49,304 nt of DNA from Polyangium aurulentum (GTDB taxonomy: Bacteria; Myxococcota_A; Polyangia; Polyangiales; Polyangiaceae): assembly GCA_945875545.1 (NCBI GenBank), contig CAMCKZ010000013.1, positions 1 through 49,304 on the forward strand, read 5' to 3'. The notes under the pieces are model-generated. The model was given only the letters and a program-made list of their open reading frames with translations, ran no database searches and was not told where the DNA came from. Both the position numbers and the translations under genes were made by a program. Shown piece after piece: positions 6,174 to 39,980 of this stretch. Position 1 is the first letter of the stretch, and each line of letters begins with the position of its first letter.

Positions 6174-6904
6174 CGCGACGCTCGCCGTTCGTCGCTGTGA
6201 AGACGCCCGTCGCGAATCGTCAGAACACGGTCGGCGCGCTCCGCAATGCGCGGGTCGTGGGTGACCAAAATAACGGTGCGCCGCGCCGATGCGGAGCCCA
6301 CGATGAGCGACAAAATGCCGTCGCCGGTTTTGGAGTCGAGGTTGCCCGTGGGTTCATCGGCGAGGAGGAGAGGCGGGTCTCCGACGAGGGCGCGCGCGAT
6401 GGCCACGCGCTGCATTTCTCCGCCTGACAGCTGGTCAGGACGATGCTCTTTTCGCCCCCCAAGGCCCACCTGCTCAAGGGCCGCGCTCGCCCGCACCATC
6501 ACATCTCGCGCTCGCTCGCCGCTGAGGAGGGCGGGCAGCATCGCGTTCTCGAGCGCGCTGAGCGTGGGCACCAGATTGAAGAACTGAAAAATGAAGCCGA
6601 TGCGCTCTCGCCGGAGGCGCGTGAGGCCGTCGTCGTCGAGGTCGTTTACATCTTGCCCGTTGAAAAAAATGCGGCCGGAACTTGGGCGATCAAGGGCGCC
6701 CATAAGGTTCAAAAGCGTGCTTTTTCCGCTGCCAGATGGCCCGACGATGGCGACGAACGAACCCGCCTCCACCGTCAACGTCATGGCCGCCAACGCAACG
6801 ACGTCGGGTGCCGTTGCCTGCTCCGCGCCGCTCTCGCCGTCGGTCTGGAGGTTTCCGCGGTAGCGCTTTTCTACGCTCTCAAACTTCACGATAGCTTCGC
6901 CCAT
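6170..6904 (-). CDS. ABC transporter ATP-binding protein (LolD/MacB/YbbA type)
   Basis: The 244-residue ATPase has Walker A GPSGSGKST, signature LSGGEMQRVAIARAL, Walker B LLLADEPTG and a switch His in ILVTHDPRIAERADRV. The LNLMGALDRPSSGRIFFNG segment is typical of the LolD/MacB/YbbA branch that partners FtsX-type permeases. An acidic insertion (QTDGESGAEQATAP) between the N-terminal strand and VVALAAM is longer than usual for the family. It powers the coupled permease, whose start codon overlaps its stop. The gene lies 72 bases after the carrier protein gene on the same strand. Confidence 0.93.
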   Translation of the reverse strand: MGEAIVKFESVEKRYRGNLQTDGESGAEQATAPDVVALAAMTLTVEAGSFVAIVGPSGSGKSTLLNLMGALDRPSSGRIFFNGQDVNDLDDDGLTRLRRERIGFIFQFFNLVPTLSALENAMLPALLSGERARDVMVRASAALEQVGLGGRKEHRPDQLSGGEMQRVAIARALVGDPPLLLADEPTGNLDSKTGDGILSLIVGSASARRTVILVTHDPRIAERADRVLTIRDGRLHSDERRASR

Positions 6905-6976
6905 GAAGCCTCCTTTTTTTGCCCCCGCAGCCGAAACGCAACCTCGTAGACAACGTGCCAGCGAGGGGCCCGGAAA

Positions 6977-7279
6977 TCAGGCTGCGTCGCGCTTTCGGCC
7001 CACGTAAGCCACGAGGTTGTTGATTGAGTCGAAGTTTGAAGGGAGCGCTTCCTCGGCCTCAACGACAAAACCAAAGGTCTCCTCGAGGTGCATGATTAGC
7101 TCCAGCATGCCCGCGGAATCGATGACGCCGGTGCGTTCAAGGGACTGCTCGTCTTTGAGAGACGAGGGGTCGGCTCCCGCCAGGAATTGGTCGAGGATGA
7201 AAGCTCGAAGCGCGTCGCGAGGGCCGCTAAGAGCATCGCGTACGGGGTCGCTGATCGTGTCGCTCATGGGCTTGTTCAT
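6977..7279 (-). CDS. acyl carrier protein
   Basis: The protein has up to 100 residues; an internal Met at 7267 would give 96. It has a four-helix carrier protein pattern with SLERTGVIDSAGMLELIMHLEETFGF. The Ser in GVIDS is the expected 4'-phosphopantetheine attachment site, although the usual Leu after it is Ala. This resembles stand-alone carrier proteins of small biosynthetic loci more than the fatty-acid AcpP, whose site is DSLD. It sits between a PLP-dependent decarboxylase gene (100 bases upstream) and an ABC exporter (72 bases downstream), all on one strand. It probably carries an amino acid or acyl group for that pathway. Confidence 0.85.
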   Translation of the reverse strand: MNKPMSDTISDPVRDALSGPRDALRAFILDQFLAGADPSSLKDEQSLERTGVIDSAGMLELIMHLEETFGFVVEAEEALPSNFDSINNLVAYVGRKRDAA

Positions 7280-7379
7280 GGGGTCACAGGCGAGGTCTCT
7301 GCGGGCAAGGAACCAGGGGCGTCACCAAACCCGAGACCGGGCTTGGGCGCAAGGCCGAACAGCAGTTGAGCGGCATCGG

Positions 7380-8618
7380 TCACGCAAAGTGGCCCATCGT
7401 GAACGACGGGCGAACCACCCGGGCATCGACGCCGTTCCACAGCAGTTCTTGCGGGGTCGGGTGCCCCAAAAACAGAAGGGGGCTCGCGGCGTAGGAGTAG
7501 GCACCCACATGCAGAAACGCGATGGCGTCTCCGATGCGGCACCGGGGGAGCACGGCCTCGCGCGCCAGACTATCGATGGGCGTGCAGAGGGGGCCGACGA
7601 CGTCTTGCAGGCACGGGTCGTCCACGCGCGAGAGGTTCACAATCGGGTAGTTCTTTTTCACGAGCTGACCGAAGTTTCCCGTGGCCGGAAACACGTGATT
7701 CATGCCGCCATCGAGCACGACAATGCGCTTACCGCGCGTCTCTTTCACGTCGATAACGCGGGCCACGTAAGCCCCAAACCGGCCGACGAAAAAGCGACCA
7801 AGTTCGAGCACGAAGCGCATCTGCGAGAAACGTGTATCCTGCAAGCGTCGATCTTCAAGGACGCCCGCGATGGCGGCCCCACCAACCTCTGGAGCGAGGT
7901 CGGGTTGGCCCTCAAAGTAAGGAACACCAAAGCCTCCGCCGAGGTTCACGTGGCGAAACGAGGCGCCGGTTTCGGTCATCAGGGCCGCAGCCAGATCAAG
8001 GGTTTGCCTTGCATTTTCAGCCAGCGCAGAGGCCTCGAGGCATTGGGTGCCCGCAAAAACATGCAAGCCGTCTAGATCGATGTGGGGCGATGCGATTGCC
8101 TGGCGAACCACCGCCGCTGCATCTTCTTCGGGCACACCGAACGCGGAGGCCTGCCCACCCATGCGCATGCCGAAAAGTTTGCTTGTGTGTTTGGGGTTCA
8201 CGCGAATCGCGATGCTCGCCTTGGTGCCTTTCTGCGAGGCGACGGAGACGATGCGGTGCAGTTCGGTCTCGGACTCAACGGAGATGGACGCGCGCTCTCG
8301 AATGGCCAGACTCAGCTCCGGCAAACTCTTGCCAGGCCCCGCAAAACTCATGAATGGGCCGGGAATTCCCAGCCCGCGCATGAACGCCAGCTCGCCCCCG
8401 GAACTTACGTCGAGCCCTTGAACCTCGGGCACCAAGAGCTCCACGAGCGAACGATTCGCGTTGGCCTTCACGCAGTACAGCAGGTCAACGCACGACGGGA
8501 GGGCCGCCCGTAGCTCCCGCGCGTGGGCCACCATCGCGGGGCCGTCGTAGAGGTAAAACGGCGCGTCGATGCGCGCGGCGAGTTCTTCAAGCGGGGCGTC
8601 GGTGAGAAACGGAATCAT
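7380..8618 (-). CDS. type III PLP-dependent decarboxylase (diaminopimelate/ornithine decarboxylase-like)
   Basis: The 412-residue protein has an alanine-racemase-like barrel. The PLP lysine is K51 in YCVKANAN, and the phosphate loop is NLGGGFGVPY. ELGRFFVG replaces the usual EPGR, and the C-terminal half has VLDGGMNHVF and VVGPLCTPIDSL with the active-site Cys. The GPLCTP variant and the adjacent carrier protein resemble the decarboxylases linked to carrier proteins in exosortase-type loci, rather than housekeeping lysA. The likely reaction is decarboxylation of a basic or diamino acid; the substrate cannot be assigned. Its start overlaps the acyltransferase stop by 4 bases (ATGA). One copy of the recurrent 11-mer lies inside (7833-7843). 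Confidence 0.87.
   Translation of the reverse strand: MIPFLTDAPLEELAARIDAPFYLYDGPAMVAHARELRAALPSCVDLLYCVKANANRSLVELLVPEVQGLDVSSGGELAFMRGLGIPGPFMSFAGPGKSLPELSLAIRERASISVESETELHRIVSVASQKGTKASIAIRVNPKHTSKLFGMRMGGQASAFGVPEEDAAAVVRQAIASPHIDLDGLHVFAGTQCLEASALAENARQTLDLAAALMTETGASFRHVNLGGGFGVPYFEGQPDLAPEVGGAAIAGVLEDRRLQDTRFSQMRFVLELGRFFVGRFGAYVARVIDVKETRGKRIVVLDGGMNHVFPATGNFGQLVKKNYPIVNLSRVDDPCLQDVVGPLCTPIDSLAREAVLPRCRIGDAIAFLHVGAYSYAASPLLFLGHPTPQELLWNGVDARVVRPSFTMGHFA
7833..7843 (-). repeat. copy 2 of recurrent 11-mer TGCAGRATACA
   Basis: The minus strand reads GCTTGCAGGATACAC inside the decarboxylase gene, encoding L-Q-D-T. Confidence 0.5.
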
Positions 8619-9325
8619 GGGGAACCCTCGGGCACGATGCGCTTCACCACACGGCCCGGATTTCCCATCACGATGGAGTCGGGCGGAACGCTGGTACGCA
8701 GCACGGATCCAGCTCCGAGAACACTTCGGGCTCCGACGCGCACGCCCTTCAAAATGGTGCAGTGCTTGCCGACTTGAACGCCGTCTTCGAGGATCACGGG
8801 CGCGATGTCGTCGTCGCCGGCGGGCACTTCCCAAATGGGCTTTTTCGGATCGTAGTGCGAGTGACCCTCCGTGTCGGCGATGTAACTTTGGGAACCGATG
8901 GACACAAAGTTGCCGAGGGTGATGCTCGACGCCACATCGAAGGTCGTGTTGTGGCCGATGAAAACGCCGTTGCCGATCATGAGCTTTGGGCTGCGCGTAG
9001 AAACGGGCTTGATGTTCACTTGACCGGAAAAACGCACGTCATCGCCGAGTTCGATGTGGCACGGCGCGGTCATGTACGGGATGCGGTCGATGGCGATTCG
9101 CTCGCCGTGCTTGGCGCACTTCGCTAGAAAAAGAGGCGTCGCGATGAGCGACCGCTCGGCCCATTCGGCGAGCTCGCGGGCCGTCCAGTGGCCTTCGAAA
9201 AGGGCGGCGTACAGGGGGCGAAGCGCGGCCGGTGGCACGAGAGCACGGTGAACCACTTTCTTGGCGATGGGCCTCACCTCGCTGTGCAGAAACCGCTCCC
9301 AAGCCGTGCGCGAATCGTCTCCCAT
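8615..9325 (-). CDS. left-handed beta-helix (hexapeptide) acyltransferase
   Basis: The 236-residue protein has a helical N-terminal part (about 1-95), then hexapeptide turns from about 95 to 225, for example IGNGVFIGHNTTFDVASSI and ILEDGVQVGKHCTILKGV. It ends with MGNPGRVVKRI, typical of WbbJ/CatB-like acetyltransferases. These transfer an acetyl or other acyl group to sugars, amines or antibiotics. It is the first gene of the minus-strand run leading to the decarboxylase and carrier protein, so the acceptor may be a decarboxylation product or a carrier-bound intermediate. That is an inference. It is divergent from apbC, 86 bases apart. Confidence 0.88.
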   Translation of the reverse strand: MGDDSRTAWERFLHSEVRPIAKKVVHRALVPPAALRPLYAALFEGHWTARELAEWAERSLIATPLFLAKCAKHGERIAIDRIPYMTAPCHIELGDDVRFSGQVNIKPVSTRSPKLMIGNGVFIGHNTTFDVASSITLGNFVSIGSQSYIADTEGHSHYDPKKPIWEVPAGDDDIAPVILEDGVQVGKHCTILKGVRVGARSVLGAGSVLRTSVPPDSIVMGNPGRVVKRIVPEGSP

Positions 9326-26007: not shown

Positions 26008-26712
26008 ATGCAGATTTTCCCAAGGTCCCTGAATAAACTGCCTGCGATAGCCGCTGCTGCGGCGGCGCTTGGCCTCGGCGGAATTCTGTTCGTCGTGACC
26101 TACTATTTCTCTCCGTGGAACACGCAGGTCGGCTACGCGCCGAAACAGCCCGTGCCCTACAGCCATCGGCTTCATGCCGGCGAGCTGGGCATCGACTGCC
26201 GCTACTGCCATTCCAACATCGAGCGTTCCGGAATTGCCCAGATTCCGCCCACGCAAACGTGCATGAATTGCCACGCGGTGGTTCAAACCAAATCCGCGAA
26301 GCTCGCCCCCGTCCGCGAGAGCTGGTGCTCCACGGTGCCCGGAGACCATCGCACCGAGGCCACGTGCCCGGGCGTCGCGAAAGAAAAGTTCGCCGACGTC
26401 GGCGTTGACAAAGCCGTCCCGTGGGTAAAAGTCCACAAGCTCGCCGACCACGCGTATTTCGACCATTCCGCGCACTTGACAGCGGGCGTTGGCTGTGAGT
26501 CGTGCCACGGGCGCGTCGACCAAATGGAGGTCGTACGGCAGGTCAAGCCCCTCAGCATGGGCTGGTGCCTCGAGTGCCACCGCAACCCCGAACCCAATCT
26601 TCGCCCTCTCGATAAGGTGACGACCATGGGTTACCAGCCAGGTGCCTCGGGAACCTTCAAGAAGGCCCGCGAAGTGAATCCACCCCAACACTGTTCTGGT
26701 TGCCACCGATGA
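26008..26712 (+). CDS. actA: alternative complex III subunit ActA, pentaheme cytochrome c
   Basis: The 234-residue protein has a membrane helix near residues 13-33 and five CxxCH heme sites at C64, C85, C163, C187 and C229. It is the electron-transfer cytochrome of alternative complex III, the quinol:acceptor oxidoreductase that replaces the bc1 complex in many Myxococcota, Bacteroidota and Chloroflexota. The spacing of the sites and the closing HCSGCHR match the cytochrome c7-like ActA. The helix would anchor it at the outer face of the inner membrane. It is the first gene of the operon; its stop overlaps the actB start by 4 bases. Confidence 0.95.
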   Translation: MQIFPRSLNKLPAIAAAAAALGLGGILFVVTYYFSPWNTQVGYAPKQPVPYSHRLHAGELGIDCRYCHSNIERSGIAQIPPTQTCMNCHAVVQTKSAKLAPVRESWCSTVPGDHRTEATCPGVAKEKFADVGVDKAVPWVKVHKLADHAYFDHSAHLTAGVGCESCHGRVDQMEVVRQVKPLSMGWCLECHRNPEPNLRPLDKVTTMGYQPGASGTFKKAREVNPPQHCSGCHR

Positions 26713-29700
26713 CACGCCGCGCCCCCTTTGAGCACTCCCCTGCCGCCGCCGACTCGCCTGAATATTGGCGCAGTCTGCCCGAGCGCGCACGCCTCGCCGA
26801 CCCCGATTTTCTCCTGTCCCGCGCCGCCGAATTCCCCATGGGCGTCGGTGCATTGCCCAACTCCCCCGACTCCACGCCCGACGCGTCGTCTGGTCTCGGG
26901 CGCCGTGGTTTTATGGGCTGGCTTGGTGCAGCGTTTGCCCTCGCGGGCGCCGAGGGCTGCCGTCGTCCCCTCGAAAAGATATTGCCTTATGGTCGCCAGC
27001 CAGCCTCGCAGACCATTGGCGTGCCTTCGCACTTTGCCACTGTGCATGTGCGCCGGGGCGAAGCCCTTGGAATCCTTGCGGAAAGCCATGAGGGTCGCCC
27101 AACCAAGCTCGAGGGTAATCCGGGCCACCCGGCCAGTCAGGGTGCCGCAGACCTGCAAACCCAGGCGGAGATTCTGGGCCTTTACGACCCCGATCGCACG
27201 GGCACGGTAACCCTCGCGGGCGAGTCTTCGTCGTGGGAAGCCTTTTTCCTGGCGGTTTCCAAGGTAAAGGCAGACCTGCACTTTTTGGTTGCGCCAACGG
27301 CGTCGCCGTCGTTGCACCGGCTGCGCGCCAATTTCGGCCGCCGCGTCCACGTTTGGGGTGCCGACGCGGTTTCGCAGCCGCAGTCGGGGCACAAGCTCGC
27401 GTACGGGCAGGCGCTGCAAGCCGTTTATTCCTATGAATCGGCCCGCGCAATTGTCTCTCTCGACGCCGATTTCTTGCAGACCGAAGCCGGCAGCATCGCC
27501 GCGACCAAGGGTTTTTCCAAGAGCCGCCGTTTGCGTTCGCCAACCGACGTCATGTCGCGCCTTTGGGTAGCCGAGCCATCTTTCTCCTTGACGGGCTCGA
27601 ACGCCGACGAGCGACTCCCGGTTAAGCCGTCGGAAATCCGGGCGATTGCTTTGGCGTTGGCCGACCAGCTGAAGACGGCGAACCTTCGTCTTCCCGGAGT
27701 TCTTGAGAAGATCAAACTTTCCGACGCGGCGTCCGCCTGGGTCAAGGGCGCGGCCCAAGATCTTTTGGCGCACAAGGGTCAGTGCGTCGTCGTGCTTGGG
27801 TCTTTCCACTCGGAAGAAATCCACGCCCTCGTGGCCATGATCAACGAAAGTCTCGAGAACGTCGGCAAGACGGTCCGCTACTTCCAGCCGGCGGTCCCGC
27901 AAGACGCCGACACGGCCGATTTCCAGCAGTTCGCCAAAGATCTCGCCGCGGGTGCTGTCAAAGCGGTGGTAATCATGGGCGGAAACCCCGTCTACGACGC
28001 GCCCGCCGACCTGAACATCGCCGCGGGGCTCGCGAAGGTCCCGTTTACCGCGCGCCTCGGCCAACACGCGGACGAAACGTCCGATAAGTGCCAGTGGCAT
28101 CTGCCCGCGTCCCACACGTTTGAAAGCTGGGGCGACGCCCGCGCCTTCGACGGCACGTACTCGGTGCAACAGCCGCTGATAGCTCCCCTTCGCGACACGC
28201 GCAGCGAGCTGGAGCTCCTGGCCAAACTGACCGACGCCACGTCCGCGCCCATGCAGATCGTGCGCGATACGTTCAAGAATGTGGCAGCTTCCGACTCCGA
28301 CAGAGTTTGGAAGAGAACGCTGCGTGACGGCTTCGCGCCATCTACGCTCACCACCTCGTGGGGGTCGCGTGTGGTTGCCGACGGCGTGCTGGCGGCGCTG
28401 GCCCGAGCCGGCGCGGCCGAAAGCGGCGATCTGGAGGTACATTTCGTCCTGGACGCCCGCATGGAAGACGGCCGCCACGGAAATAACCCTTGGCTAAAAG
28501 AGCTCCCGGATCCGCTGACCAAGCTCTCTTGGGACAACGCGGCCGTGATTGGCCCAAAGACCGCACGGGATCTCGCCGTTAAAGAGGGCGATATTCTCAA
28601 GGTCACCGTCGGCGACGCCTCCATTGAAATTGGCGCGATGGTCCTGCCCGGTGTGGCCGATGGCGTTGTAAGTTTGGCGCTGGGTTGGGGTCGTACCCGC
28701 GGCGGGCGCATGATTACGCCTCTTCGCGAATCCTACGACCCCCTTCGCATGACCGAGGTCGAGGTCGACGGCGGCTTCAACGTCTACCCGATTCGTACGA
28801 CACAGACCCTCGCGTTTGCCTCCGCAAAGGTGGAGCGCACGGGCCGAACCTACGTTTTCGCGCAGACGCAAGAGCACCACGGCATGGACGGTCGGCCGAT
28901 TGCCCGCGAGACGAACTTCGCGGACTACAAGAAGCGCCCGAATTTCGCGGCACAAATGGGGCCTCAGCCCACGGCCACGAACAAATTGCCACTCTGGAAG
29001 GAGCACGATTATTCCGGTCCGGTCCACAAGTGGGGCATGTCCATCGACCTCGCGGCTTGCACCGGCTGCAATGCGTGTGTGGTCGCGTGCCAGGCCGAGA
29101 ACAACATCGGCGTCGTGGGCAAGCGCCTCGTCAAGGTGAACCGCGAGCTTCACTGGCTCCGAATCGACCGCTACTTCCTCGACACCCCGGAAAACGAAGC
29201 CAAAACCGCGGGCGACCCGACGAAGCCCGACCCAATGCCTGCGAATCCCCGCGTGGCCTTCCACCCGATCGCGTGCCAGCAGTGCGAAGAGGCACCGTGC
29301 GAGAACGTGTGTCCGGTGAACGCAACCGCGCACGGTCCCGAGGGCCTCAACGATATGTCGTATAACCGATGTATCGGCACGCGCTATTGCGCGAACAACT
29401 GCCCGTACAAGGTTCGCCGTTTCAACTACATGGACTACAAGTCCGAGTTCTGGGGCGACCCCGCGCTGGGTATTCCGCGCCACGATCCTCTGGCCCGCCA
29501 GGTCGAGTTCCCCGCGACGATCCAGATGCAGTTCAACCCGGATGTTACGGTTCGTATGCGCGGCGTGATGGAAAAGTGCACATATTGTGTGCAGCGAATC
29601 CAGCGCGCGAAGATCGAAAAGAAGGGGCGGCTCTCGGTGGCCGCGCATCTTACCGGTAGCGCAACCGTGAAGACTGAAGAGCTCCTTTTGACCGAAGCCG

Positions 29701-29891
29701 AGACACCGCTCACGGCGTGCCAACAGACGTGCCCCGCCGACGCCATTTCTTTCGGAAATCTCAACGATCCCGGAAGCCGCGTCTCCGCGCTTCACAACCT
29801 CGACCGCAAGTACGCCTTGCTCGGGGAACTCGGAACACAGCCGCGCACCAAGTACCTGGGCAAGGTCCGCAACCCGCATACGGAGGGCTGA
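26709..29891 (+). CDS. actB: alternative complex III subunit ActB, molybdopterin-like and iron-sulfur protein
   Basis: The 1060-residue protein fuses a molybdopterin-oxidoreductase-like region (about 85-700) with a C-terminal four-cluster ferredoxin region. The ferredoxin region has [11 protein letters not shown] from residue 784, [14 protein letters not shown] from 856, [14 protein letters not shown] from 888 and KCTYC near 957. In characterised ACIII the first part lacks the cofactor and the clusters form a wire to the hemes. A twin-arginine signal ([18 protein letters not shown]65-R66) lies after an about 60-residue N-terminal extension and is followed by GC, consistent with Tat export and possible lipid attachment at Cys84. 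It would sit outside the membrane on ActC/ActF. Confidence 0.95.
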
Positions 29892-29899
29892 GGCGTATC

Positions 29900-31375
29900 A
29901 TGGGTTATCACGAGCCACTTACAGAAATCGGGGAGTTTCCCCTCGTCCAGCCCGGAACGACCATGCGCGTCGTCACCGAGACCGTCGCCGGCGTTACCGA
30001 GAATCCGGCCCCAAAGGGCTGGTGGATGCTCTTCGCGGTCGCCCTCAGCTTTCTGGGCATCTTCGGCGGCACCATCGGCTACCTCTTTTGGCGCGGTGTC
30101 GGCATTTGGGGCAACAACAACCCGGTTTACTGGGGCTGGGACATCACCAACTTCGTGTGGTGGGTTGGCATCGGCCACGCCGGCACCCTGATTTCGGCGG
30201 TTTTGTTCCTATTTAGGCAGAAATGGCGAACGGCGATTAATCGGTTCGCCGAGGCGATGACCATTTTCGCTGTTATCTGCGCCCTGATTTTCCCTGGAAT
30301 TCACGTCGGTCGTCCCTGGCTCGCGTACTACATGTTCCCGCTCCCCAATCAAATGGGGATCTGGCCGAACTTCAAGAGCCCGCTCCTATGGGACCTCTTC
30401 GCGGTCGGCACCTACTTCACCGTTTCGCTGTTGTTCTGGTACGTTGGGCTCATTCCCGACTTCGCCACCCTCCGCGACCGCTCCAAGACCCAGGTTCGCC
30501 GGGTGGTTTACGGTCTTCTCGCCTTCGGATGGCGCGGTTCAAACCGCCACTGGCAGAACTACGAGCGGGCCTACCTGATCCTCGCCGCCCTCAGCACGCC
30601 ACTCGTTTTGTCCGTGCACTCGGTCGTTTCCTTCGACTTCGCAACCTCCCTTGAGCCCGGCTGGCACACCACCATTTTCCCGCCGTATTTCGTCGCGGGC
30701 GCGGTGTTCAGCGGCTTCGCGATGGTCATGACGCTGCTTCTCGTCACGCGCCAGGTGTTCAAGCTCGAACACATCGTCACGATGAAGCACCTCGACCTGA
30801 TGAACAAGATCATGCTCGTGACCGGCAGCCTCGTGGGTTACGCGTACGCTATGGAGTTCTTCACGGCGTGGTACTCCGGCAACACCTACGAGCGCTACGT
30901 GTTCATGAACCGCGCATTTGGTCCTTATGCGTGGGCGTATTGGGCAATGGTCAGCTGCAACGTGATTTCCCCGCAGTTTTACTGGTTTAAGAGCCTTCGC
31001 CAGAACATTCCGCTGATGTTCGTCATCTCGATCGTCATTAATATCGGTATGTGGTTCGAGCGCTTTGTCATCATCGTTACGTCGCTGCACCGCGACTTTC
31101 TCCCGGGTTCGTGGGGCTACTTCCACGCGACTATTTTCGACTTCTGCACGTACTTGGGCACGTTCGGCGTATTCTTTACGCTGTTTCTCCTGTTCATTCG
31201 CTGGGTTCCCATGATTGCCATCGCTGAAGTCAAGGCCACCCTACCGGAGGCAGACCCGCACTTCTCCGCCGCCGGAACCGGGTCGCATGCGTCGCACGGG
31301 TCGCACGGGTCGCACGGCGAGGCCCACGGGGCTGCGGCGGGAGTTCACGCGGCGGCGCACGGGGTGGCGGAATGA
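29900..31375 (+). CDS. actC: alternative complex III subunit ActC, NrfD-like quinol-binding membrane protein
   Basis: The 491-residue protein has about ten membrane helices and NrfD/PsrC features, including [15 protein letters not shown] and [19 protein letters not shown]. In ACIII it binds menaquinol and passes electrons to the Fe-S subunit, and may carry a proton path. The last 35 or so residues are His-rich (for example [15 protein letters not shown]), which is not part of the conserved fold. The ATG at 29900 lies 8 bases after the actB stop; the upstream extension of the frame is antisense-free but lies in actB. It overlaps actD by 4 bases. Confidence 0.95.
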
Positions 31376-31941
31376 GCGCCCCAACGCCCACGCGGGCAGC
31401 GAAAAAGCGGCCTGCGCTGCTTCTGGCCCAGTTCGAATCAACGGCCGACGTCCTTCACGCGGCGGAGAAGGTGCGGGAGGCGGGCTACCAAAAGTGGGAC
31501 GTCCACACGCCATTTCCGGTTCACGGAATGGACAAGGCCATGGGCCTGCCCGACTCAAAACTCGGATGGATTGTCGCAACCATGGCGATTATCGGGTTCT
31601 GCTCGGCGCTCTCGATGTACTATTTCATGAATGGGGTCGACTACGCGATCATCGTCGGCGGCAAGCCAGGGTTTAGCCCGCCCGCGGCCGTGCCGGTTTA
31701 CTTCGAGGTAACGGTTCTTTTGAGTGCCTTCGGCACGGTGTTCGGAATGTTTCACTTGAACGGGCTGCCAAGGCATCACCACCCGATTTTTGAATCCGAC
31801 CGGTTCGCGGCGGTGACGGACGATAAGTATTTTATCTCCATCGAGGCGGGCGACAGCAAATTTGATGTGAATGAAACCAGGGGTTTTCTAGAAAACCTCC
31901 ACCCGACGCACATCGAGCTGCTCGAGGAGGCCGTCTCGTGA
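31372..31941 (+). CDS. actD: alternative complex III subunit ActD (DUF3341)
   Basis: The 189-residue protein has a cytoplasmic N-terminal domain ([23 protein letters not shown], then [12 protein letters not shown]) and two membrane helices (about 64-88 and 104-127). The DUF3341 signatures of ActD follow: [11 protein letters not shown] and FFISIE-like [13 protein letters not shown]. In ACIII it is an accessory membrane subunit that contacts ActC on the cytoplasmic side. Both ends overlap neighbouring genes by 4 bases, so it is translated as part of the actC-D-E series. Confidence 0.93.
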
Positions 31942-32531
31942 GGTCCCCATCGCCGACCAGCATCCTGGCCGTTTCCGCGTTCGCCCTCGCGGCGTGCCGG
32001 GGCGAGGTCTCAGAAGACCCGCCGGTCACGCTCATTCGCAACATGCACAACCAGCCGAAGTACAAAGCCCAGGCTGCGGGCAAGTTTTTTGCCGATGGCC
32101 GCGCCATGAGGCAGCCCGTCGAGGGTACGCTTTCCGTGGAGGCGTTCGAAGAAGACGACGAGCGCTCCACCGGTGTCGCCAGCGATGCTCAGGGTTATGT
32201 GCTTGACATCCCTAAGAAAGCAGCGGCGGCGTTCGGTGGCGTCGATGCCCTCGTGGCGCGTGGCAAAGAGCGTTTCGGCATCTACTGCGCGCCCTGCCAC
32301 GGCCTCATCGGCGACGGCAACGGAACAGTGGCCAAGCGCGGCTTTACGGGGATTGCGAGCCTGCACCAAGACCGCATCCGCCGGAGCCCGGACGGTCAGC
32401 TGTACGCGACCATCACAAATGGTGTGCGAACCATGCCCGGCTACGCGGCGCAAATTCCCATGAACGATCGCTGGGCCATCGTGGCCTATGTGCGCGTGCT
32501 CGAACTCTCCCAAGCAGTCTCGGCGAAGTAG
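31938..32531 (+). CDS. actE: alternative complex III subunit ActE, monoheme cytochrome c lipoprotein
   Basis: The 197-residue protein starts with GTG overlapping the actD stop (GTGA). It has a lipoprotein signal with lipobox LAAC (Cys20), one heme site CAPCH (C117, C120, H121) and a downstream TMPGY supplying a likely axial Met. It is the membrane-tethered cytochrome that hands electrons from ACIII to the terminal oxidase, here probably to the heme domain of CoxB. The N-terminal NMHNQPKYKAQ segment is typical of ActE. Confidence 0.94.
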   Translation: MRSPSPTSILAVSAFALAACRGEVSEDPPVTLIRNMHNQPKYKAQAAGKFFADGRAMRQPVEGTLSVEAFEEDDERSTGVASDAQGYVLDIPKKAAAAFGGVDALVARGKERFGIYCAPCHGLIGDGNGTVAKRGFTGIASLHQDRIRRSPDGQLYATITNGVRTMPGYAAQIPMNDRWAIVAYVRVLELSQAVSAK

Positions 32532-32539
32532 AGGATCCG

Positions 32540-33916
32540 TTGGCTTCCACACACGAACACACTGTTAGCGAAATCCGCCTTCCCGAGGGCAGCGCTTGGC
32601 ACAAGGCCTGGCAATACTTTCTGGCGGTTGGTGCGGTAGGCCTTGCTGGGTCCGCGTTCGGGTACCACTCGGACCCAAAACGCTTTGGTTTCGCGTGGGT
32701 TTTCGCGCTCACGACCGTTCTCATGATCGGCCTCGGGTCCCTGTTTTTCGTCGTCGTTCAGCACGTGGTCGGCGCGTATTGGTCCGTGACCGTGAGGCGC
32801 ATCGCCGAAATGGTGATGAGCGGCCTGCCGTCGATCGTCGTTCTGGTGATTCCGCTGCTGGTGGTGGCCCCACGCGTCTACTCGTGGATGGGCGAACATG
32901 GGGAACACGGAGAGCACGCCGCGGCGGCCACACACACGGAACACGGCGGTACAGCACACGACCACGGCGGTACAGCACACGACCACGGCGGTGCAGCACA
33001 CGACCACGCGGACGTTTCGAGCCCGGTGGCGCTGGCGCACGCCGAGCACGAGGCCGAGGAGGCCTTGGAGGCCGGAATCGTCGACGGCAAAAAGGCGTAC
33101 TTGAACAAGGGCGGGTTCTACGGCCGTGCCGCCGGTTATGTGGCGGTGTGGTCCGTTCTCGCACTTTTGTACATGCGCTGGTCGATCAAACAGGACGAAG
33201 ACGGCGATTTGGCGCACACCAACGCCGCGCGCAGTTTGGCCCCCATTGCATTGATTCTCTTCGGTCTGACCCTGACCTTCGCCGGAATCGATTGGCTGAT
33301 GAGCCTCGACCCCCTTTGGTATTCAACGATTTTCGGGGTCTATTTGTTCGCCATGGGAATGGTGTCGTTCTTTGCGACGCTCATTCTTTTGATCACGGGG
33401 CTTCGCGCATCGGGGATTCTCGTCAAAGAGATATCCGTCGAGCATTTGCACGATGTGGGCAAGTTTCAGTTCGGGTTCCTGTCGTTCTGGGCTTACATCG
33501 CATTTAGCCAGTTTTTCTTGATTTATTACGCGAGCATTCCCGAAGAGGTCACCTTCTTCCACAAACGCTGGACGCTCGACCCGGGTGCCGATCACGCGTG
33601 GGCGAAGGTCACCGTTGTGTTGATTGCGCTCCACTTCATTGTGCCGTTCATCTTCATGATGTCGCGGAATATCAAGCGGAATACAAGCTTGCTCCCCGTC
33701 GGAGCGGTGCTATTGCTAGCTACGCATGTCATCGAAGTGTACTGGATTGTCCTCCCTAACTTCGGAGACCTGAGCCCAGCCCTCGTTGACGTTTCGGCGC
33801 TTCTGGCCTGCGTTGGCATTTTCTTCGGTGTTGGCTTGAAGAGCCTCACCGTCCACTCGCTCATCGCCGCCAAAGATCCTCGGATTGAGCGCGCGTTGAG
33901 TTTCGAGCAAGTCTGA
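32540..33916 (+). CDS. actF: alternative complex III subunit ActF, NrfD-like membrane protein with His-rich loop
   Basis: The 458-residue protein has about ten membrane helices homologous in layout to ActC, with HDVGKFQFGFLSFWAYIAFSQ and HKRWTLDPG typical of ActF. It probably forms the second quinol or proton half of ACIII. The start is TTG 32540 with GAGGA 4 bases before it. Between helices, residues 118-171 form a His-rich loop with 13 His, partly built from three HGGTAHD-type repeats. This loop is far richer in His than expected for the family core and may bind metal or buffer protons (inference). Confidence 0.94.
   Translation: MASTHEHTVSEIRLPEGSAWHKAWQYFLAVGAVGLAGSAFGYHSDPKRFGFAWVFALTTVLMIGLGSLFFVVVQHVVGAYWSVTVRRIAEMVMSGLPSIVVLVIPLLVVAPRVYSWMGEHGEHGEHAAAATHTEHGGTAHDHGGTAHDHGGAAHDHADVSSPVALAHAEHEAEEALEAGIVDGKKAYLNKGGFYGRAAGYVAVWSVLALLYMRWSIKQDEDGDLAHTNAARSLAPIALILFGLTLTFAGIDWLMSLDPLWYSTIFGVYLFAMGMVSFFATLILLITGLRASGILVKEISVEHLHDVGKFQFGFLSFWAYIAFSQFFLIYYASIPEEVTFFHKRWTLDPGADHAWAKVTVVLIALHFIVPFIFMMSRNIKRNTSLLPVGAVLLLATHVIEVYWIVLPNFGDLSPALVDVSALLACVGIFFGVGLKSLTVHSLIAAKDPRIERALSFEQV
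32942..33004 (+). repeat. 21-bp tandem repeat, three copies, inside actF
   Basis: The 21-base unit begins CACGGCGGTACAGC and ends ACACGAC, encoding H-G-G-T-A-H-D. Copies lie at 32942-32962, 32963-32983 and 32984-33004; the third has GCA in place of ACA, giving Ala. The near-identity of the DNA suggests recent expansion of the His-rich loop. Confidence 0.85.
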
Positions 33917-33928
33917 GTCGAGGACGAC

Positions 33929-34393
33929 ATGGCAGTCGAAAAACCCGAGCCCAAAAGCGGCATTATCATACAAATCGCGATTGCCTCCATCGTCGCGGTG
34001 GTGGCGGTGCGCTTCGGCGTCGTGTCTCTCTACCACCAGACCGTCGACGACGAGTACCACCGCAAGTTCGACAACGCCGGCCTCGAGGAAATCCGCGCGC
34101 AACGGGCGACGGCCGAGACCAAACTCGTGCACCTCGATCGGGCGGGCGCCGAGTACGCCAAGCTCGGCCGCGGTGCCGGGGCAAACGCCATCTTTCCGGC
34201 GGACTACGCGTGTGAGTCCGTCGACTCCGCGCCACAAAAAGGCTGGACACACACCCCCACAGGTTACGTCGCGAAGGCATGCCCGGTTGTCGACGCAGGA
34301 GCCGCCAGCGACGCCAGCGACGCCAGCGACGCGGCGGCAGACGGCTCAGCGGGCAACCCGGCCGCACCCGCGGCAGTACCCCCCCATAACTGA
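33929..34393 (+). CDS. single-pass membrane protein of unknown function in the respiratory operon
   Basis: The 154-residue protein has a short cytoplasmic start, one membrane helix (about 11-33) and an exported domain beginning SLYHQTVDDEYHRKFDNAGLEEIRAQR. The tail is low-complexity, with four near-identical 9-base units (GACGCCAGC-like) near 34308-34340 coding ASD repeats, then Pro/Ala. A GAGGA ribosome site lies 5 bases before the ATG. It sits 12 bases after actF and 2 bases before the SCO gene, so it is likely an accessory or assembly factor of ACIII or the oxidase. I recognise no named family. Confidence 0.8.
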   Translation: MAVEKPEPKSGIIIQIAIASIVAVVAVRFGVVSLYHQTVDDEYHRKFDNAGLEEIRAQRATAETKLVHLDRAGAEYAKLGRGAGANAIFPADYACESVDSAPQKGWTHTPTGYVAKACPVVDAGAASDASDASDAAADGSAGNPAAPAAVPPHN

Positions 34394-35294: not shown

Positions 35295-36254
35295 ATGAAC
35301 GATAATCCATCAATGCAAATGCCAGTGGCCCTGTCGGCGTACGCTACGGACGTCGACAAGAGTTACTATATTATCTATTGGCTCAGTGTGGTGCTGTTCA
35401 TTGGCATTATTGGCGCGGCCACGTATTTCTGCTTGGCTTACAAGCGAAAGGCGGGCGTTCGCGCGGAGCCGACGGGCCACAACAATATTCTTGAGCTCAG
35501 CTGGACGGTCGCGCCGGTGTTCATTCTCGCGTATCTCTTCTGGATTGGCTGGAAGGGCTACGTCGACATGTCGATTGTGCCGCCGAACGCCATCGAGGTG
35601 CGCGGGCGCGCGTTTCAGTGGGGCTGGGACTTCGAGTACCCGAACGGTGCCCACACACCCGACCTAAAAGCGCCGGTCGGCAAGCCCGTAAAGCTCATTC
35701 TTTCGTCAAACGACGTGCTCCACGCCTTTTTCATACCGCAATTGCGCATCAAACGAGACACCGTGCCGGGCATGTACGTCTCGCTGTGGTTCGAGGCGGA
35801 CAAAGAGGGCGACGCCGACATTTTCTGCGCCGAGTATTGCGGAGGCAAAGGCGAGGGAACGGCGGCGATAGGCCACTGGGCGATGATCTCCAAGGTGCAC
35901 ATTCTGTCCGTCGCCGACTACGACAAGTTCATCCTCGAGGGCGGGGGCGCGAAGCCCGGCGAGAGCGTGCCCGATTGGGGAAAACGTCTTTACGTCGAAA
36001 AGAACTGCGCGGGCTGTCATTCCCTCGACGGCGCCGTGGGGGCGGGCCCCTCGTGGAAGGGCATTTTTGGCCGCACCGGGGTCATGACGGCGGGGCCAGA
36101 TATCGTGGCCGACGAAAACTACATCCGCGAGTCGATTCTCGAGCCGCAGGCCCACATCGTCAAGGGTTTCGGTCCCGTGATGCCCAGCTTCAAGGGCATC
36201 CTTCAAGACAAAGAAATTGACGCCATCATCAGCTTTATGAAGACGCTGAAGTGA
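35295..36254 (+). CDS. coxB: cytochrome c oxidase subunit II with fused cytochrome c domain (caa3 type)
   Basis: The 319-residue protein has two membrane helices (about 24-46 and 70-90), a cupredoxin CuA domain and a C-terminal cytochrome c domain (CAGCH, C238/C241/H242, with M296 in VMPSF). CuA ligands visible are H143 (VLHAFFIP), C178 and C182 in CAEYC, H194 and M197 in HWAM. In ordinary subunit II only three residues separate the second Cys from the His (as in CGTDHSGM); here there are eleven ([11 protein letters not shown]), an 8-residue insertion inside the CuA loop. It accepts electrons from ActA/ActE and passes them to CoxA. Confidence 0.95.
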
Positions 36255-36264
36255 AGATTTAGCC

Positions 36265-37947
36265 ATGAACACACAAGCGCAACCCCAAGCCGGGCATCAC
36301 GACGACGCCATGCTGAATACCAATTACTTGAAGGCCGGCAGCGGCTGGAAGAGCTGGGCATTCACGCTCGACCACAAGCGAATCGGCATCATGTACTTGG
36401 TGTTCGTGCTCGCAGCATTTCTGACGGGCGGTATTTTCGCACTGTTGGTGCGCACCGAGCTCGCAAGTCAGGGGCACACCATCGTTTCCGGGCCAACGTA
36501 CAACAAGCTGTTTACGTTGCACGGCGCGATCATGGTGTTTTTGTTCATTATTCCGTCCGTTCCTGCATCCCTCGGAAACTTTATCCTGCCGATGCAGCTC
36601 GGCGCACGAGACGTGGCGTTTCCGAAGATCAATTTGTTGAGCTTTTACATCTACCTCGTGGGGGCAACCTTCGCCCTCGTGAGCATCGGATACGGCTCCG
36701 TCGACACCGGGTGGACGTTCTATACGCCGTATAGCCTCCACGACCCGGAGGCGGCGACGAAGGTCTTGTACATGACGGCGGCGGTTTTTGTCCTCGGCTT
36801 CTCGTCGATTCTCACGGGCCTGAACTTTCTCGTCACGATTCACACGTTGCGCGCGCCGGGCCTTACGTGGACGCGCCTGCCTCTCTTCATCTGGGGCATG
36901 TACGCCACCAGCATCATGCAAGTTCTCGCGACCCCGGTTTTGGCGATCACGCTGCTCATGCTCATCTTCGAGCGCGTATTTGGTCTCGGCATTTTCGACC
37001 CAAAGCTCGGGGGCGACCCCATACTTTTCCAGCATTTTTTCTGGTTCTATTCGCACCCCGCCGTGTACATCATGATCGTCCCAGGTATGGCGATCGTTTC
37101 CGAGCTCATCGCCACGTTTAGTCGCCGCGTGATTTTCGGCTACTTCGCGGTCGCCATGAGTTCCCTGGCCCTCGCGCTCGTGGGCTTTCTCGTGTGGGCG
37201 CACCATATGTTTACGTCCGGAATGAGCGAATACGCCAACATGCTCTTTTCGGCCCTGACGTTTCTCGTGGCAATTCCCTCAGGTGTTAAGGTCTTTAACT
37301 GGACGGCCACCCTTTACAAGGGGTCCATCTCGTTCGCCCCGCCCATGTTGTACGCGCTCGCGTTTCTGTTCTTGTTCACCATCGGCGGCCTCACCGGTCT
37401 GTTTCTTGGCACACTGAACGTGGACATACACTTGCACGATACGTACTTTGTGGTTGCACACTTTCATTATGTGATGATGGGCGGCACGGTCATCGGCTTT
37501 ATCGGGGGAATCCTTTATTGGTGGCCCAAGATCACCGGCAAGATGTACAACTTCACCTCCGCGTCGGTCGGGGCGTGGCTCACGTTTATTGGCTTTAACG
37601 TGACGTTCCTCTCACAGTTTGTCATGGGCAGCCGCGGAATGCCGCGTCGCTATTACGATTACCTGCCCGAGTTTGAGCAGCTTCACCGCGTATCCACCCT
37701 CGGGTCGTATATTCTCGCCGTGGGCCTTTTCACCACCGCCGGAACGCTTATTCAGTCGCTGGCGCGCGGGCGTGCGGCCGGCAGAAACCCTTGGGGCTCG
37801 GTTGCCCTCGAGTGGCAGACGCAGACGCCACCGGTTTTCCAGAATTTCGAGGAAACGCCCATCGTCACCCGGGGTCCGTACGATTACCATTTGGCGACCG
37901 ACGAAGAGCTCCGCGAAGACCTTTATGCGGTGGATCCGGCGAAATGA
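36265..37947 (+). CDS. coxA: cytochrome c oxidase subunit I, A2-type heme-copper oxidase
   Basis: The 560-residue protein has twelve helices with heme ligands H86 (TLHGAIM), H399 and H401 (VVAHFHYV), CuB ligands H264, H313 and H314, and the cross-linking Y268. The helix VI motif is FYSHPAVY: Tyr-Ser replaces the Glu of HPEVY, the mark of the A2 subtype known from Rhodothermus marinus caa3. The K-channel Lys is K342 in [10 protein letters not shown]. It reduces O2 and pumps protons. A His-containing cytoplasmic N-terminus (AGHHDD) precedes the first helix. It follows coxB by 10 bases. Confidence 0.97.
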
Positions 37948-37980: not shown

Positions 37981-38700
37981 ATGTCTAGTCCCTCCGGCGC
38001 CGCGGCGCACGATTCGCACGACTCGCATGCGCACGAGCATCCGAGTTACGTTGCCCACCATTTCGACACCGCCCAGCAGCAGTTCGACGCCGCGAAGCTC
38101 GGGATGTGGGTTTTTATTGCAACAGAAATACTGATGTTCGGCGGGCTCTTCGTCGCCTACGGGCTGATGAAAGCCAAGGAGCCCGAAGTATTCATTGCGG
38201 GGCACCATTACCTTAATAAAGTAATGGGCGCGGCGAATACGATTGTGCTGCTGTTCAGCAGTCTAACGGCGGCCTTGGCCGTGCGGTCTTCCCAGTTGGG
38301 CAAGCGCAACGAGACCTCGGCGTGGCTGGTGATCACCATTTTCTGCGCGTGCATCTTCTTGGTGGTCAAATACTTTGAGTATTCCCACAAGATCGAAGAA
38401 GGGCTTTTGCCCGGCCGTTACTTTGGGCACCCGTTTTTCGACATGTCCGCGGCGCCGGGGTTTCACGAAGCGTTGCCTAGCCGCGCGAACATGTTTTTCG
38501 GCCTGTATTTCCTCATGACGGGCCTGCACGGGCTCCACGTCGTGATCGGGATGGCGATCCTCGGATGGGTTCTCATGCGCAACATGCGCGGCGATTTCTC
38601 CCCTGAGTATTTCACGGCAGTCGAGATTGGGGCGCTTTATTGGCATCTCGTCGACTTGGTGTGGATCTATCTCTTTCCGCTCCTTTACCTGATTGGCTGA
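37981..38700 (+). CDS. coxC: cytochrome c oxidase subunit III with His-rich N-terminus
   Basis: The 239-residue protein has five to six membrane helices and the subunit III features KLGMWVFIATEILMFGGLF, GLHGLHVVIGM and YWHLVDLVWIYLFPLLYL. Subunit III stabilises the proton-pumping activity of subunit I. The first 27 residues hold seven His (AAAHDSHDSHAHEHP), which is not a conserved part of the family. A ribosome site (GAGAAGGA) precedes the ATG. It lies 33 bases after coxA and 3 bases before coxD. Confidence 0.95.
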   Translation: MSSPSGAAAHDSHDSHAHEHPSYVAHHFDTAQQQFDAAKLGMWVFIATEILMFGGLFVAYGLMKAKEPEVFIAGHHYLNKVMGAANTIVLLFSSLTAALAVRSSQLGKRNETSAWLVITIFCACIFLVVKYFEYSHKIEEGLLPGRYFGHPFFDMSAAPGFHEALPSRANMFFGLYFLMTGLHGLHVVIGMAILGWVLMRNMRGDFSPEYFTAVEIGALYWHLVDLVWIYLFPLLYLIG

Positions 38701-38703
38701 ACC

Positions 38704-39147
38704 ATGAACGCCCACGCGGAACACCCGGACGACGGTAAAGTTCGCCCACACATTGCGCCGGCCCTTTTCTATTGGGGCATTTTCGGGGCGCTGATCTTCC
38801 TCACGGTCACCACTGTGGCGGTGTCCTACGTCGATTTCGGGGCCGCCAACACGGTCATCGCGGTCTTGGTCGCCACGGTCAAGGCCGTGCTTGTGGCCAC
38901 TTTCTTCATGCACTTGGCCCACGACAGCCTGTTTAACAGTATTATTCTGTGTATGGCTTTTGTGTTCTTGGGGGTCTTCGTGGGCCTTACCTACGAAGAC
39001 ACGTCCACGCGAAACCAGCTCGATGACGCCAATGGTGCCATGATTTACGTTCGCACCGGCGAAATTGCTCCCGCGGCGTTTCCGCACAAAATGATTGTGG
39101 CACCGCATGCCGCCGAGCACAAAGCGGCCGAGGGCGGGCACCACTAA
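38704..39147 (+). CDS. coxD: cytochrome c oxidase subunit IV (CoxD/CtaF-type)
   Basis: The 147-residue protein has three membrane helices (about 22-40, 47-66 and 80-96) and the core KAVLVATFFMHLAHDS, the signature of prokaryotic subunit IV. It is a small structural subunit of the oxidase. The termini carry extra His (HAEHP at the start and AAEHKAAEGGHH at the end). It follows coxC by 3 bases. Confidence 0.92.
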   Translation: MNAHAEHPDDGKVRPHIAPALFYWGIFGALIFLTVTTVAVSYVDFGAANTVIAVLVATVKAVLVATFFMHLAHDSLFNSIILCMAFVFLGVFVGLTYEDTSTRNQLDDANGAMIYVRTGEIAPAAFPHKMIVAPHAAEHKAAEGGHH

Positions 39148-39149
39148 AC

Positions 39150-39980
39150 GTGCTTGTCAACCTACACAAGTCGGCGGCGCGTTCCGCGTCGAAATTGGCG
39201 GCCAGTTTCGCGGGGGTGGCGGTGGCGGCGAGCCTATCGGGCTGCCAGCCCAAGCACATTGAGGTCGGCGAGGAGCCGGAGGTGGCTTACCCCGAGTGCG
39301 GCGCGCTGGCGGCTGGCGCGACGGCGCGGGTCTCCGGGCTGGTTGTGGCGGGCCTCCAGGCTGCCGAGGGAATGATTGAGAAGGGCTTGATTGAGCACTA
39401 CGAGCTGCGGCCCATGAGCTGCGGCTGGCGGTACCGCGGGGCCCAGCGTTGGGGCGGCGGGCACACGGAGGTCGAAATGATTTACGACGCCAATTGGGTG
39501 CCTTTGCGCGCGTGGCGGCGCATGAGCGCGCCGGGGCCGCGGGGCACCGAGCGCCTCGACACGCGGCGCTACGAGCTTCGAACGCCGGAGCCGCGCATCC
39601 GCAAGATGACCATCGAGGGCATTCTTGGGTTCGAGCATCTTCGCGGAAAGTTCCCCCAGATATTGGTCGCGCCGTCGCGGGCCAGCGTGATTCCGTGGGT
39701 GCGAAAGGCTCGGCTCGAGGCGGGGCAAAAAACGCGGCTTCCGGGTTTGGATTTTCGCGAGCCCTTGGAAAAAGTGCGCGACGTGACCTTGAAGCGCGAA
39801 GCAGACCGTTACCACCCGGAATTCGGGCGGAATATTCGGGTCTATACGCTGTATGGTCGCGAGGCGTATTTCTTCGACGAAGAGAACAATTTGTTGGGCG
39901 ATTTGGGCGGAATGCGGCCGTTGAACGACGGAAAGCCCGAGCCATTTTTCACGAGTCAAGACCCGATGTTGCCGCCCTAG
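39150..39980 (+). CDS. lipoprotein of unknown function at the end of the oxidase operon
   Basis: The 276-residue protein starts with GTG 2 bases after the coxD stop. It has a signal peptide with lipobox LSGC (Cys32). The mature part is rich in charged and aromatic residues (HTEVEMIYDANWVPLRAWRR, RIRVYTLYGREAYF-like) and includes two Cys that could pair. I know no family with this pattern. Tight linkage to coxD suggests an envelope-side accessory or assembly protein for the oxidase, but nothing in the sequence proves it. Confidence 0.78.
   Translation: MLVNLHKSAARSASKLAASFAGVAVAASLSGCQPKHIEVGEEPEVAYPECGALAAGATARVSGLVVAGLQAAEGMIEKGLIEHYELRPMSCGWRYRGAQRWGGGHTEVEMIYDANWVPLRAWRRMSAPGPRGTERLDTRRYELRTPEPRIRKMTIEGILGFEHLRGKFPQILVAPSRASVIPWVRKARLEAGQKTRLPGLDFREPLEKVRDVTLKREADRYHPEFGRNIRVYTLYGREAYFFDEENNLLGDLGGMRPLNDGKPEPFFTSQDPMLPP

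What the first reader, a model, noticed from the sequence alone, without database searches (positions are those of the whole stretch)
35826..35886. Eight-residue insertion in the CuA loop of CoxB
CuA normally has Cys-x3-Cys-x3-His-x2-Met. Here the second Cys (C182) and the His (H194) are separated by eleven residues, [11 protein letters not shown], with HWAM then intact. All ligands remain, but the loop must fold differently, which could alter CuA potential or docking of the ACIII cytochromes.
Basis: partly seen in the sequence, partly recalled or inferred. Interest (0 to 1): 0.5.

Follow-up and report, generated by a model that had tools for sequence, protein, structure and literature searches.

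The report
Lengthened copper-binding loop in cytochrome oxidase
The protein that takes electrons into this bacterium's oxygen-consuming respiratory enzyme has a natural 8-residue stretch inserted between two of its copper-holding residues, and relatives in the same order carry 7 to 28 extra residues at the same spot, where the spacing is usually taken as fixed.

Summary
Window CoxB (35295-36254, +) reads C178-AEY-C182[12 protein letters not shown]194-WA-M197: 11 residues where the usual CuA motif has 3, all ligands kept. It is inherited, not an error: a congener has the same length, and of 234 distinct CoxB examined 56 have 10-31 residues there and 178 have 3; none has 4-9. All 56 trace to the window's own order of Myxococcota; 54 lie in one clade of 69, with several gains or losses. 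The model leaves the CuA domain well predicted and the insert disordered. The insert replaces the turn that in bovine oxidase holds Asn203, at the cytochrome c interface. I read it as a flexible rim loop on the electron-entry face beside an ordinary CuA; a tolerated, nearly neutral loop is almost as likely. No spectrum or potential of a natural long-loop CuA was found. New variant of a known kind.

The parts
35295..36254 (+). coxB, caa3-type subunit II: two transmembrane helices, CuA cupredoxin domain, fused cytochrome c domain; 319 aa
   Evidence: Pfam COX2_TM, COX2 and Cytochrom_C over cut-off; fold matches 2yev_B, 7au6_B and 1w2l
35826..35885 (+). CuA ligand loop C178-x3-C182-x11-H194-x2-M197
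   Evidence: translation and codon positions; ligands invariant in 30 and in 78 aligned sequences
35841..35873 (+). the lengthened segment [11 protein letters not shown] (usual length 3, so 8 extra residues)
   Evidence: 8-residue gap against 2yev_B; pLDDT under 50 at residues 185-190 in an otherwise confident model
35721..35723 (+). H143, first His ligand of CuA
   Evidence: invariant column; role by homology
35970..36251 (+). fused cytochrome c domain of CoxB (CAGCH at residues 238-242, M296)
   Evidence: Pfam Cytochrom_C; 1w2l, cytochrome c domain of a caa3 oxidase, Z 18.3, rmsd 1.1 over 96 residues
34396..35247 (+). Sco-type copper chaperone gene directly upstream (CPMLC)
   Evidence: Pfam SCO1-SenC; CxxxC motif
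36265..37947 (+). coxA, subunit I, with FYSHPAVY (the YS motif of A2-type oxidases, label recalled)
   Evidence: Pfam COX1; motif scan
37981..39147 (+). coxC (37981-38700) and coxD (38704-39147)
   Evidence: Pfam COX3 and COX4_pro; NCBIfam caa3_sub_IV
26008..33916 (+). alternative complex III genes: actA (26008, five CxxCH), actB (26700), actC (29717), actD (31372), actE (31938, one CxxCH), actF (32540)
   Evidence: Pfam ActD, NrfD, Fer4 and cytochrome matches; none for actF; heme motifs; order from actB on repeated in L110, L111, L114. Names other than ActD are by order and homology

Best explanation
The window encodes an ordinary caa3-type CoxB whose copper-ligand loop has been opened at one place, between the second Cys and the second His, and fitted with a flexible segment. 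Shown: the ligands are all kept; the ends are marked by small or turn-forming residues (C-G-[A/G] ... [G/N]-H); the trait occurs through one order of Myxococcota with lengths 10-31; the model keeps the CuA domain and leaves the insert disordered. Inferred: the Cys-x3-Cys cage and the His-x2-Met end keep the normal CuA geometry, because the insert leaves and re-enters at one turn. The insert then stands on the rim of the copper site where in the bovine enzyme Asn203 meets cytochrome c, and there it acts as a contact loop or gasket for the electron donor, most probably CoxB's own fused cytochrome c domain, with ACIII's ActE as the possible donor to that domain. It would tune the dwell and orientation of the donor rather than the chemistry of CuA.
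For: Ligands H143, C178, C182, H194, M197 invariant in 30 and 78 sequences that include both loop kinds. 56 of 234 distinct CoxB have 10-31 residues, 178 have 3, none 4-9. In the long-loop set the residue before His is G or N in 56 of 56 (71 of 178 ordinary), the residue after Cys-Gly is A or G in 55 of 56 (4 of 178), the residue before Met is S, T, A or G in 54 of 56 (49 of 178), and an aromatic follows His in 24 of 56 (1 of 178). No Cys in any of the 56 segments, so no new thiol ligand. AlphaFold2 mean pLDDT 90.5 with only 185-190 as a stretch under 50; L111 with 20 residues behaves alike. Bovine Asn203 is in the cytochrome c interface and Met207 on the proposed entry path (PMC5286356, passages). 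Some lineages keep the segment as well as or better than the core, e.g. L066/L067 0.92 against 0.78.
Against: Over 118 pairs of equal loop length (core identity 0.5-0.98) the segment averages 0.46 identity against 0.67 for the CuA core and 0.36 for the interdomain linker, and beats the linker in only 71 of 118: near what a loosely held surface loop would show. The trait needs 7 changes on the tree and is absent from 15 rows inside the same clade, so it is dispensable. The residue preferences are confounded by ancestry: only 4 supported independent pairs exist and no test can reach 0.05. No partner change tied to the loop found in ActE, Sco, CoxA or CoxC (4 long-loop operons only). H194 lies in a block with mean pLDDT 70, so its geometry is not shown. 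The docking pose of the fused domain is not known.
Confidence: 0.4

Rival explanations
1. Near-neutral loop: the turn between Cys2 and His became tolerant of insertions in this order, and length and sequence drift with no effect on docking or potential.
For: Lengths 10, 11, 14, 15, 18, 19, 20, 22, 25, 26, 30, 31 within one order; segment diverges faster than the core; absent from 15 rows inside the clade; composition led by G, A, P, T, E, S, N; low-confidence in both models; no partner covariation.
Against: No lengths 4-9 among 56; end residues strongly restricted; several lineages conserve the segment closely. With about 7 changes on the tree the missing lengths may still be the chance of few origins.
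Confidence: 0.35
2. Redox tuning: the longer loop changes the CuA electronic structure or shifts its potential to match the donor.
For: Ligand-loop replacement is an accepted way of tuning CuA and type 1 sites (PMC7480511 section 4), and type 1 sites built in a CuA scaffold mostly shift 50-210 mV from their native proteins (section 7); an aromatic after His194 in 24 of 56 could alter second-sphere packing.
Against: First-sphere ligands all kept; within that series natural loop sequences account for up to 50 mV only; length varies widely without a matching change seen in ActE.
Confidence: 0.1
3. Copper-chaperone recognition: the loop is the site read by the operon's own Sco when the thiols are reduced and copper is inserted, and the extension makes the pair specific.
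For: Copper transfer in vitro depends on the Cox2 loop sequence (human Sco1 loads a chimera with human-type loops but not the bacterial domain; PMC6696091, passages). A sco gene lies directly before coxB here and in L110, L111, L114.
Against: Sco is also upstream of ordinary-loop CoxB (a sco match in 20 of 20 ordinary and 20 of 21 long-loop stretches). The CxxxC-to-His spacing shows no split between the two sets (one long-loop row, L289, gave no CxxxC), and no column parts long-loop from ordinary Sco within the clade (20 against 8 sequences).
Confidence: 0.08
4. ACIII-specific docking: the loop evolved to meet the ACIII cytochromes (ActE or ActA).
For: Operon actABCDEF-sco-coxBACD; ActE is stated to be a direct electron donor to caa3 in Rhodothermus marinus (PMC5928083, passages).
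Against: Ordinary-loop CoxB equally ACIII-linked, 47 of 47 placeable; among the named loci 33 with spacing 3 hold an ActD match in the fetched stretch, most of them outside Myxococcota; three orphan long-loop copies; the ActE insert follows ancestry.
Confidence: 0.06
5. Artefact: assembly error or frameshift.
For: The genome is a fragmented assembly of 188 contigs.
Against: In-frame, same length in G002 and G035, and long loops in many independent assemblies including G048 (one contig) and G421 (two contigs).
Confidence: 0.01

Closest known systems
caa3-type cytochrome c oxidase subunit II of Thermus thermophilus (2yev_B)
   Same: Two helices, CuA domain and fused cytochrome c; 28% identity
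   Different: Three residues between Cys2 and His; the window has 11. Whole-chain rmsd 7.8 over 265 residues, so the domain arrangement of the model differs or is not fixed
Rhodothermus marinus caa3 linked to alternative complex III (1w2l domain; PMC5928083, passages)
   Same: Same operon logic of ACIII then caa3, five-heme ActA, one-heme ActE, fused cytochrome c domain (47% identical to 1w2l, rmsd 1.1)
   Different: The five distinct Rhodothermota CoxB examined have spacing 3; the R. marinus CuA sequence itself was not read
Bovine COX2 and canonical CuA (C-x3-C-x3-H-x2-M)
   Same: Same five side-chain ligands and fold (1occ_B Z 18.8, rmsd 2.0, 199 residues)
   Different: Spacing Cys2 to His 11 in place of 3; the Asn203 turn replaced
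Engineered loop chimeras in the Thermus CuA scaffold (PMC7480511, sections 4, 6, 7)
   Same: Change of ligand-loop length in a CuA fold
   Different: Those are designed and turn CuA into mononuclear type 1 sites; here the natural CuA ligand set is kept and only the Cys2-His stretch grows

Membership tests
CoxB / COX2 (subunit II of heme-copper oxidases) | Pfam COX2 and COX2_TM over gathering cut-off | tested here: met
   PF00116 43.6 bits (cut-off 22), PF02790 27.2 (22.8)
CoxB / COX2 (subunit II of heme-copper oxidases) | NCBIfam equivalog TIGR02866 over its cut-off | tested here: inconclusive
   147.0 bits against a cut-off of 147.7, just under; the Pfam COX2 match stops at residue 184, where the insert begins
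Binuclear CuA site | Ligand residues His, Cys, Cys, His, Met all present | tested here: met
   invariant columns 143, 178, 182, 194, 197
Binuclear CuA site | Literal spacing C-x3-C-x3-H-x2-M (signature recalled) | tested here: not met
   C-x3-C and H-x2-M met; Cys2 to His is x11
Binuclear CuA site | Mixed-valence Cu2S2 spectrum and potential | not testable with these tools
   needs expressed protein
caa3 oxidase | Cytochrome c domain fused to subunit II | tested here: met
   PF00034 46.0 bits, CAGCH; 1w2l rmsd 1.1 over 96 residues
A-type heme-copper oxidase, A2 subgroup | YS motif in place of the Glu of helix VI in subunit I (definition recalled) | tested here: met
   FYSHPAVY at residue 261 of CoxA
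ACIII-linked oxidase | act cluster directly upstream | tested here: met
   ActD PF11821 214.7 bits and neighbours
ACIII-caa3 supercomplex | physical association and direct electron transfer | not testable with these tools
   no structure of this enzyme

The most novel reading that the evidence does not exclude
In one order of Myxococcota the CuA ligand loop has become a modular insertion site: either the classic 3 residues or a self-contained loop of 10 or more, sometimes accompanied by a Cys-rich microdomain placed just before the first Cys ligand, so that the electron-entry face of cytochrome oxidase is remodelled from species to species while the copper site stays fixed. The spacing held to be invariant in CuA proteins would then reflect which lineages had been looked at, and the loop would be a natural lid or docking part that sets electron entry.
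Probability: 0.25. Interest if true: 0.65.

Novelty: new variant of a known kind. Interest (0 to 1): 0.45.

Why it matters
C-x3-C-x3-H-x2-M is taken (recalled) as the signature of CuA from bacteria to mitochondria, and loop length is used by designers to tune copper sites. A natural series with 10 to 31 residues at one point of that loop, all ligands kept, is a ready-made set for asking how far loop length matters for CuA geometry, potential, copper loading and electron entry. It also warns annotators: the window CoxB falls just under the NCBIfam cut-off for CoxB.

Tried and rejected
ACIII linkage as the cause: ActD adjacency does not part the loop kinds. Partner change in ActE: a first comparison of 4 long-loop with 49 ordinary operons suggested a 6-residue ActE insert. 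With 21 long-loop and 20 ordinary ActE printed side by side and read by eye, a like stretch is also in the 8 ordinary members of the same clade and is missing in L021, a long loop from outside that clade, so it follows ancestry (one of the 20 ordinary rows is the second ACIII of G005; my notebook entry says 9 of 20, the recount is 8). Partner change in CoxA, CoxC or Sco: no indel and only scattered single residues (4 long-loop operons; Sco again). ActA had only 1 long-loop and 2 ordinary rows and says nothing.

Extra copper ligand in the insert: rejected, no Cys in 56 of 56; His 1.3% and Met 0.2% of the residues.

Occurrence outside Myxococcota: the first pattern scan (38 genomes) was faulty; its gap range missed all four known long loops in that set. 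The corrected pattern finds 32 of 40 known loops of 8-18 residues and was run over 297, 294 and 296 genomes of the phyla of L122 (Acidobacteriota), L135 (Planctomycetota) and L158 (Rhodothermota label): 14, 7 and 16 genomes gave 14, 7 and 17 matches. All 38 were read: most are out of frame or hold a stop. Of the loci fetched for them only L259 is a CoxB, with spacing 3. Of the unfetched in-frame ones, G1131 and G1092 themselves read spacing 3 and were not confirmed as CoxB, and the second match of G1293 resembles L264 and L265, which are not CoxB. Loops longer than 18 and other codons would be missed.

Structural second look: whole-chain match to 2yev_B has rmsd 7.8, so the relative placing of the CuA and cytochrome domains in the model is not used. 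The PDB chains were not read one by one for their spacing; chain 9wcx_d was not examined. Pfam names for the Cys-rich segment (Dickkopf_N, Lustrin_cystein) are below cut-off and not adopted.

Literature: 10 searches; from the titles and abstract starts listed I saw no paper on natural CuA loops of other length. Only open-licence papers are held, so this does not show absence from print.

Full report
What is there. The window carries an alternative complex III and caa3 oxidase cluster on the plus strand: actA, actB, actC, actD, actE, actF, a small unassigned gene, a Sco-type chaperone gene, coxB, coxA, coxC, coxD. ActA has five and ActE one CxxCH motif, CoxB one in its fused cytochrome c domain. 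The order from actB to coxD, without the small unassigned gene, recurs in L110, L111 and L114. The window lies in a 3.5 Mb, 188-contig assembly with a single COX2 match.

The observation. CoxB reads C178-AEY-C182[12 protein letters not shown]194-WA-M197 at 35826-35885. Against the solved Thermus caa3 subunit II the alignment opens eight residues between Cys2 and His.

How unusual. I read the Cys2-to-His spacing in 242 CoxB loci, L002 to L243, brought in by similarity to the window protein; every one gave a motif (earlier scripts missed some because of a too narrow filter). After removal of identical copies 234 remain: 178 with spacing 3 and 56 with 10, 11, 14, 15, 18, 19, 20, 22, 25, 26, 30 or 31; none has 4 to 9. 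Because loci were picked by similarity these are not prevalences. Of the 56, 53 come from genomes of the window's own order (own 1, same genus 1, same family 12, same order 39). The other three are named records, L111, L112 and L114; they sit on contigs of the same lengths as contigs of same-order genomes (G321:C50, G317:C1450, G329:C115), so I take them as the same assemblies. The 178 ordinary ones are 51 of the same family, 4 of the same order, 12 of the same class, 37 of the same phylum and 74 named records of many phyla. In the named collection 77 of 80 loci were translated by their match range: 73 have spacing 3 and the four others are L110, L111, L112, L114. Pattern scans of 887 genomes in three other phyla found no confirmed long-loop CoxB, with a recall of 32 of 40 on known loops of 8-18 residues. 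The order is probably Polyangiales; that name is my inference, the tools give only codes, and the NCBI title of L110 says Myxococcaceae.

History. In a tree of 108 CoxB with the loop removed, the 29 long-loop rows need 5 changes. In a larger one with 56 long-loop and 93 ordinary rows they need 7, and 54 of the 56 lie in one clade of 69 rows (SH-aLRT 98), which leaves L021 and L228 of family f8 apart (part of the printed tree was cut, L021's place is seen). So the trait is old in one clade, was probably gained again elsewhere, and was lost or never gained in 15 rows of the clade; counts of changes cannot tell gain from loss. Both are quick trees with SH-aLRT support only.

Anatomy of the loop. 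Ligands H143, C178, C182, H194 and M197 are invariant in alignments of 30 and of 78 sequences holding both loop kinds. In the long-loop set the residue before His is G or N in 56 of 56 (71 of 178 ordinary), the residue after Cys-Gly is A or G in 55 of 56 (4 of 178), the residue before Met is S, T, A or G in 54 of 56 (49 of 178), and an aromatic follows His in 24 of 56 (1 of 178). No segment holds a Cys. These preferences are not independent of ancestry: only four supported independent pairs exist, none going the other way in the tests printed, and no test can reach 0.05 (the printout for the upstream insert was cut). For 118 pairs of equal loop length and core identity 0.5-0.98 the segment averages 0.46 identity, the CuA core 0.67, the interdomain linker 0.36, the cytochrome domain 0.60; the segment beats the linker in 71 of 118. 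It is held less well than the core and somewhat better than the linker; the pairs share rows and are not independent.

Structure. AlphaFold2 with 78 sequences gives mean pLDDT 90.5; the only stretch under 50 is 185-190, and the blocks 181-190 and 191-200 average 51 and 70. A relative with 20 residues, L111, has its two stretches under 50 in the same segment, 188-190 and 197-200. The CuA and membrane part matches bacterial and bovine subunit II (7au6_B Z 19.3, rmsd 2.6, 208 residues; 1occ_B Z 18.8, rmsd 2.0, 199) and the C-terminal domain matches 1w2l (Z 18.3, rmsd 1.1, 96). Copper is not modelled and H194 is in a weakly predicted block, so ligand geometry is inferred, not shown.

Where the insert stands. 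It replaces the three residues before the second His ligand. In the bovine cytochrome c complex the last of these, Asn203, is described as the one side chain in the interacting region that differs between complex and free crystals, and the proposed entry path runs through Tyr105 and Met207 (PMC5286356, passages). That places the insert on the electron-entry rim by homology. In Rhodothermus marinus ActE is held to donate to caa3 (PMC5928083, passages; [quoted passage not shown]

ActD is found in 78 of 80 genomes searched. Among CoxB of those genomes that can be placed, 24 of 27 long-loop and 47 of 47 ordinary ones lie within 10 kb of ActD; 2 and 12 near contig ends were left out. The three exceptions, L054, L065 and L068, are second long-loop CoxB copies in genomes that also have an ACIII-linked one, and in 14-16 kb around them no other act or cox gene of the window's kind is found by tblastn. 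ActE and Sco were not seen to change with the loop. So the loop is not an ACIII signature, though contact with ActE in this particular enzyme is not excluded.

Sco as a reader of the loop. Copper transfer by Sco depends on Cox2 loop sequence in vitro (PMC6696091, passages), which makes chaperone matching a fair rival. No covariation was seen, but only 8 ordinary members of the clade were available for that comparison.

Second hot spot. The distance from the conserved Asp155 to Cys178 is 23 in 172 of 178 ordinary and 31 of 56 long-loop sequences, and is 25-86 in the other 25 long-loop and 25-35 in the other 6 ordinary ones. Twelve of the long-loop ones carry four or eight Cys in the added stretch just before the first copper ligand; where I read them in full they begin C-x5-C-x5-C-xn-C (L207, L209, L211). 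No Pfam family reaches its cut-off there (five proteins).

Verdict. A real, inherited, length-variable extension of the CuA ligand loop, limited in this sample to one order of Myxococcota; the copper ligand set is kept. Best reading: a flexible rim loop at the electron-entry face with a near-normal CuA (0.40), closely followed by a nearly neutral tolerated loop (0.35). The loop-engineering paper read in part (PMC7480511, sections 4, 6, 7) shows that loop sequence and length matter in designed mononuclear sites; no spectrum or potential of a natural long-loop CuA turned up in the ten literature searches made.

Noticed in passing
L273, L274, L275 (CoxB at about 6371-7438, 7834-8832, 7281-8318): Orphan coxB genes with long CuA loops, away from coxA, coxC, coxD and act genes, in genomes that also have an ACIII-linked coxB; possibly alternative subunit II isoforms.
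   Followed up: partly
L055, L065-L069, L207-L212: A stretch with four or eight Cys is inserted directly before the first CuA Cys of CoxB in 12 of 56 long-loop sequences, perhaps a disulfide-rich microdomain next to a copper site.
   Followed up: partly
window 31938-32531 and L276-L315: ActE of this clade has a short extra segment, often with 'GG', before its heme motif; it follows ancestry, not the CuA loop.
   Followed up: yes
window 35295-36254: CoxB scores 147.0 against the NCBIfam TIGR02866 cut-off of 147.7, so automatic naming may miss it.
   Followed up: no
window 33929-34393: A 154-residue gene between actF and sco has no Pfam match and was not found by tblastn in L110, L111 or L114.
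   Followed up: no
window 39150-39980: A 276-residue gene right after coxD has no Pfam match.
   Followed up: no
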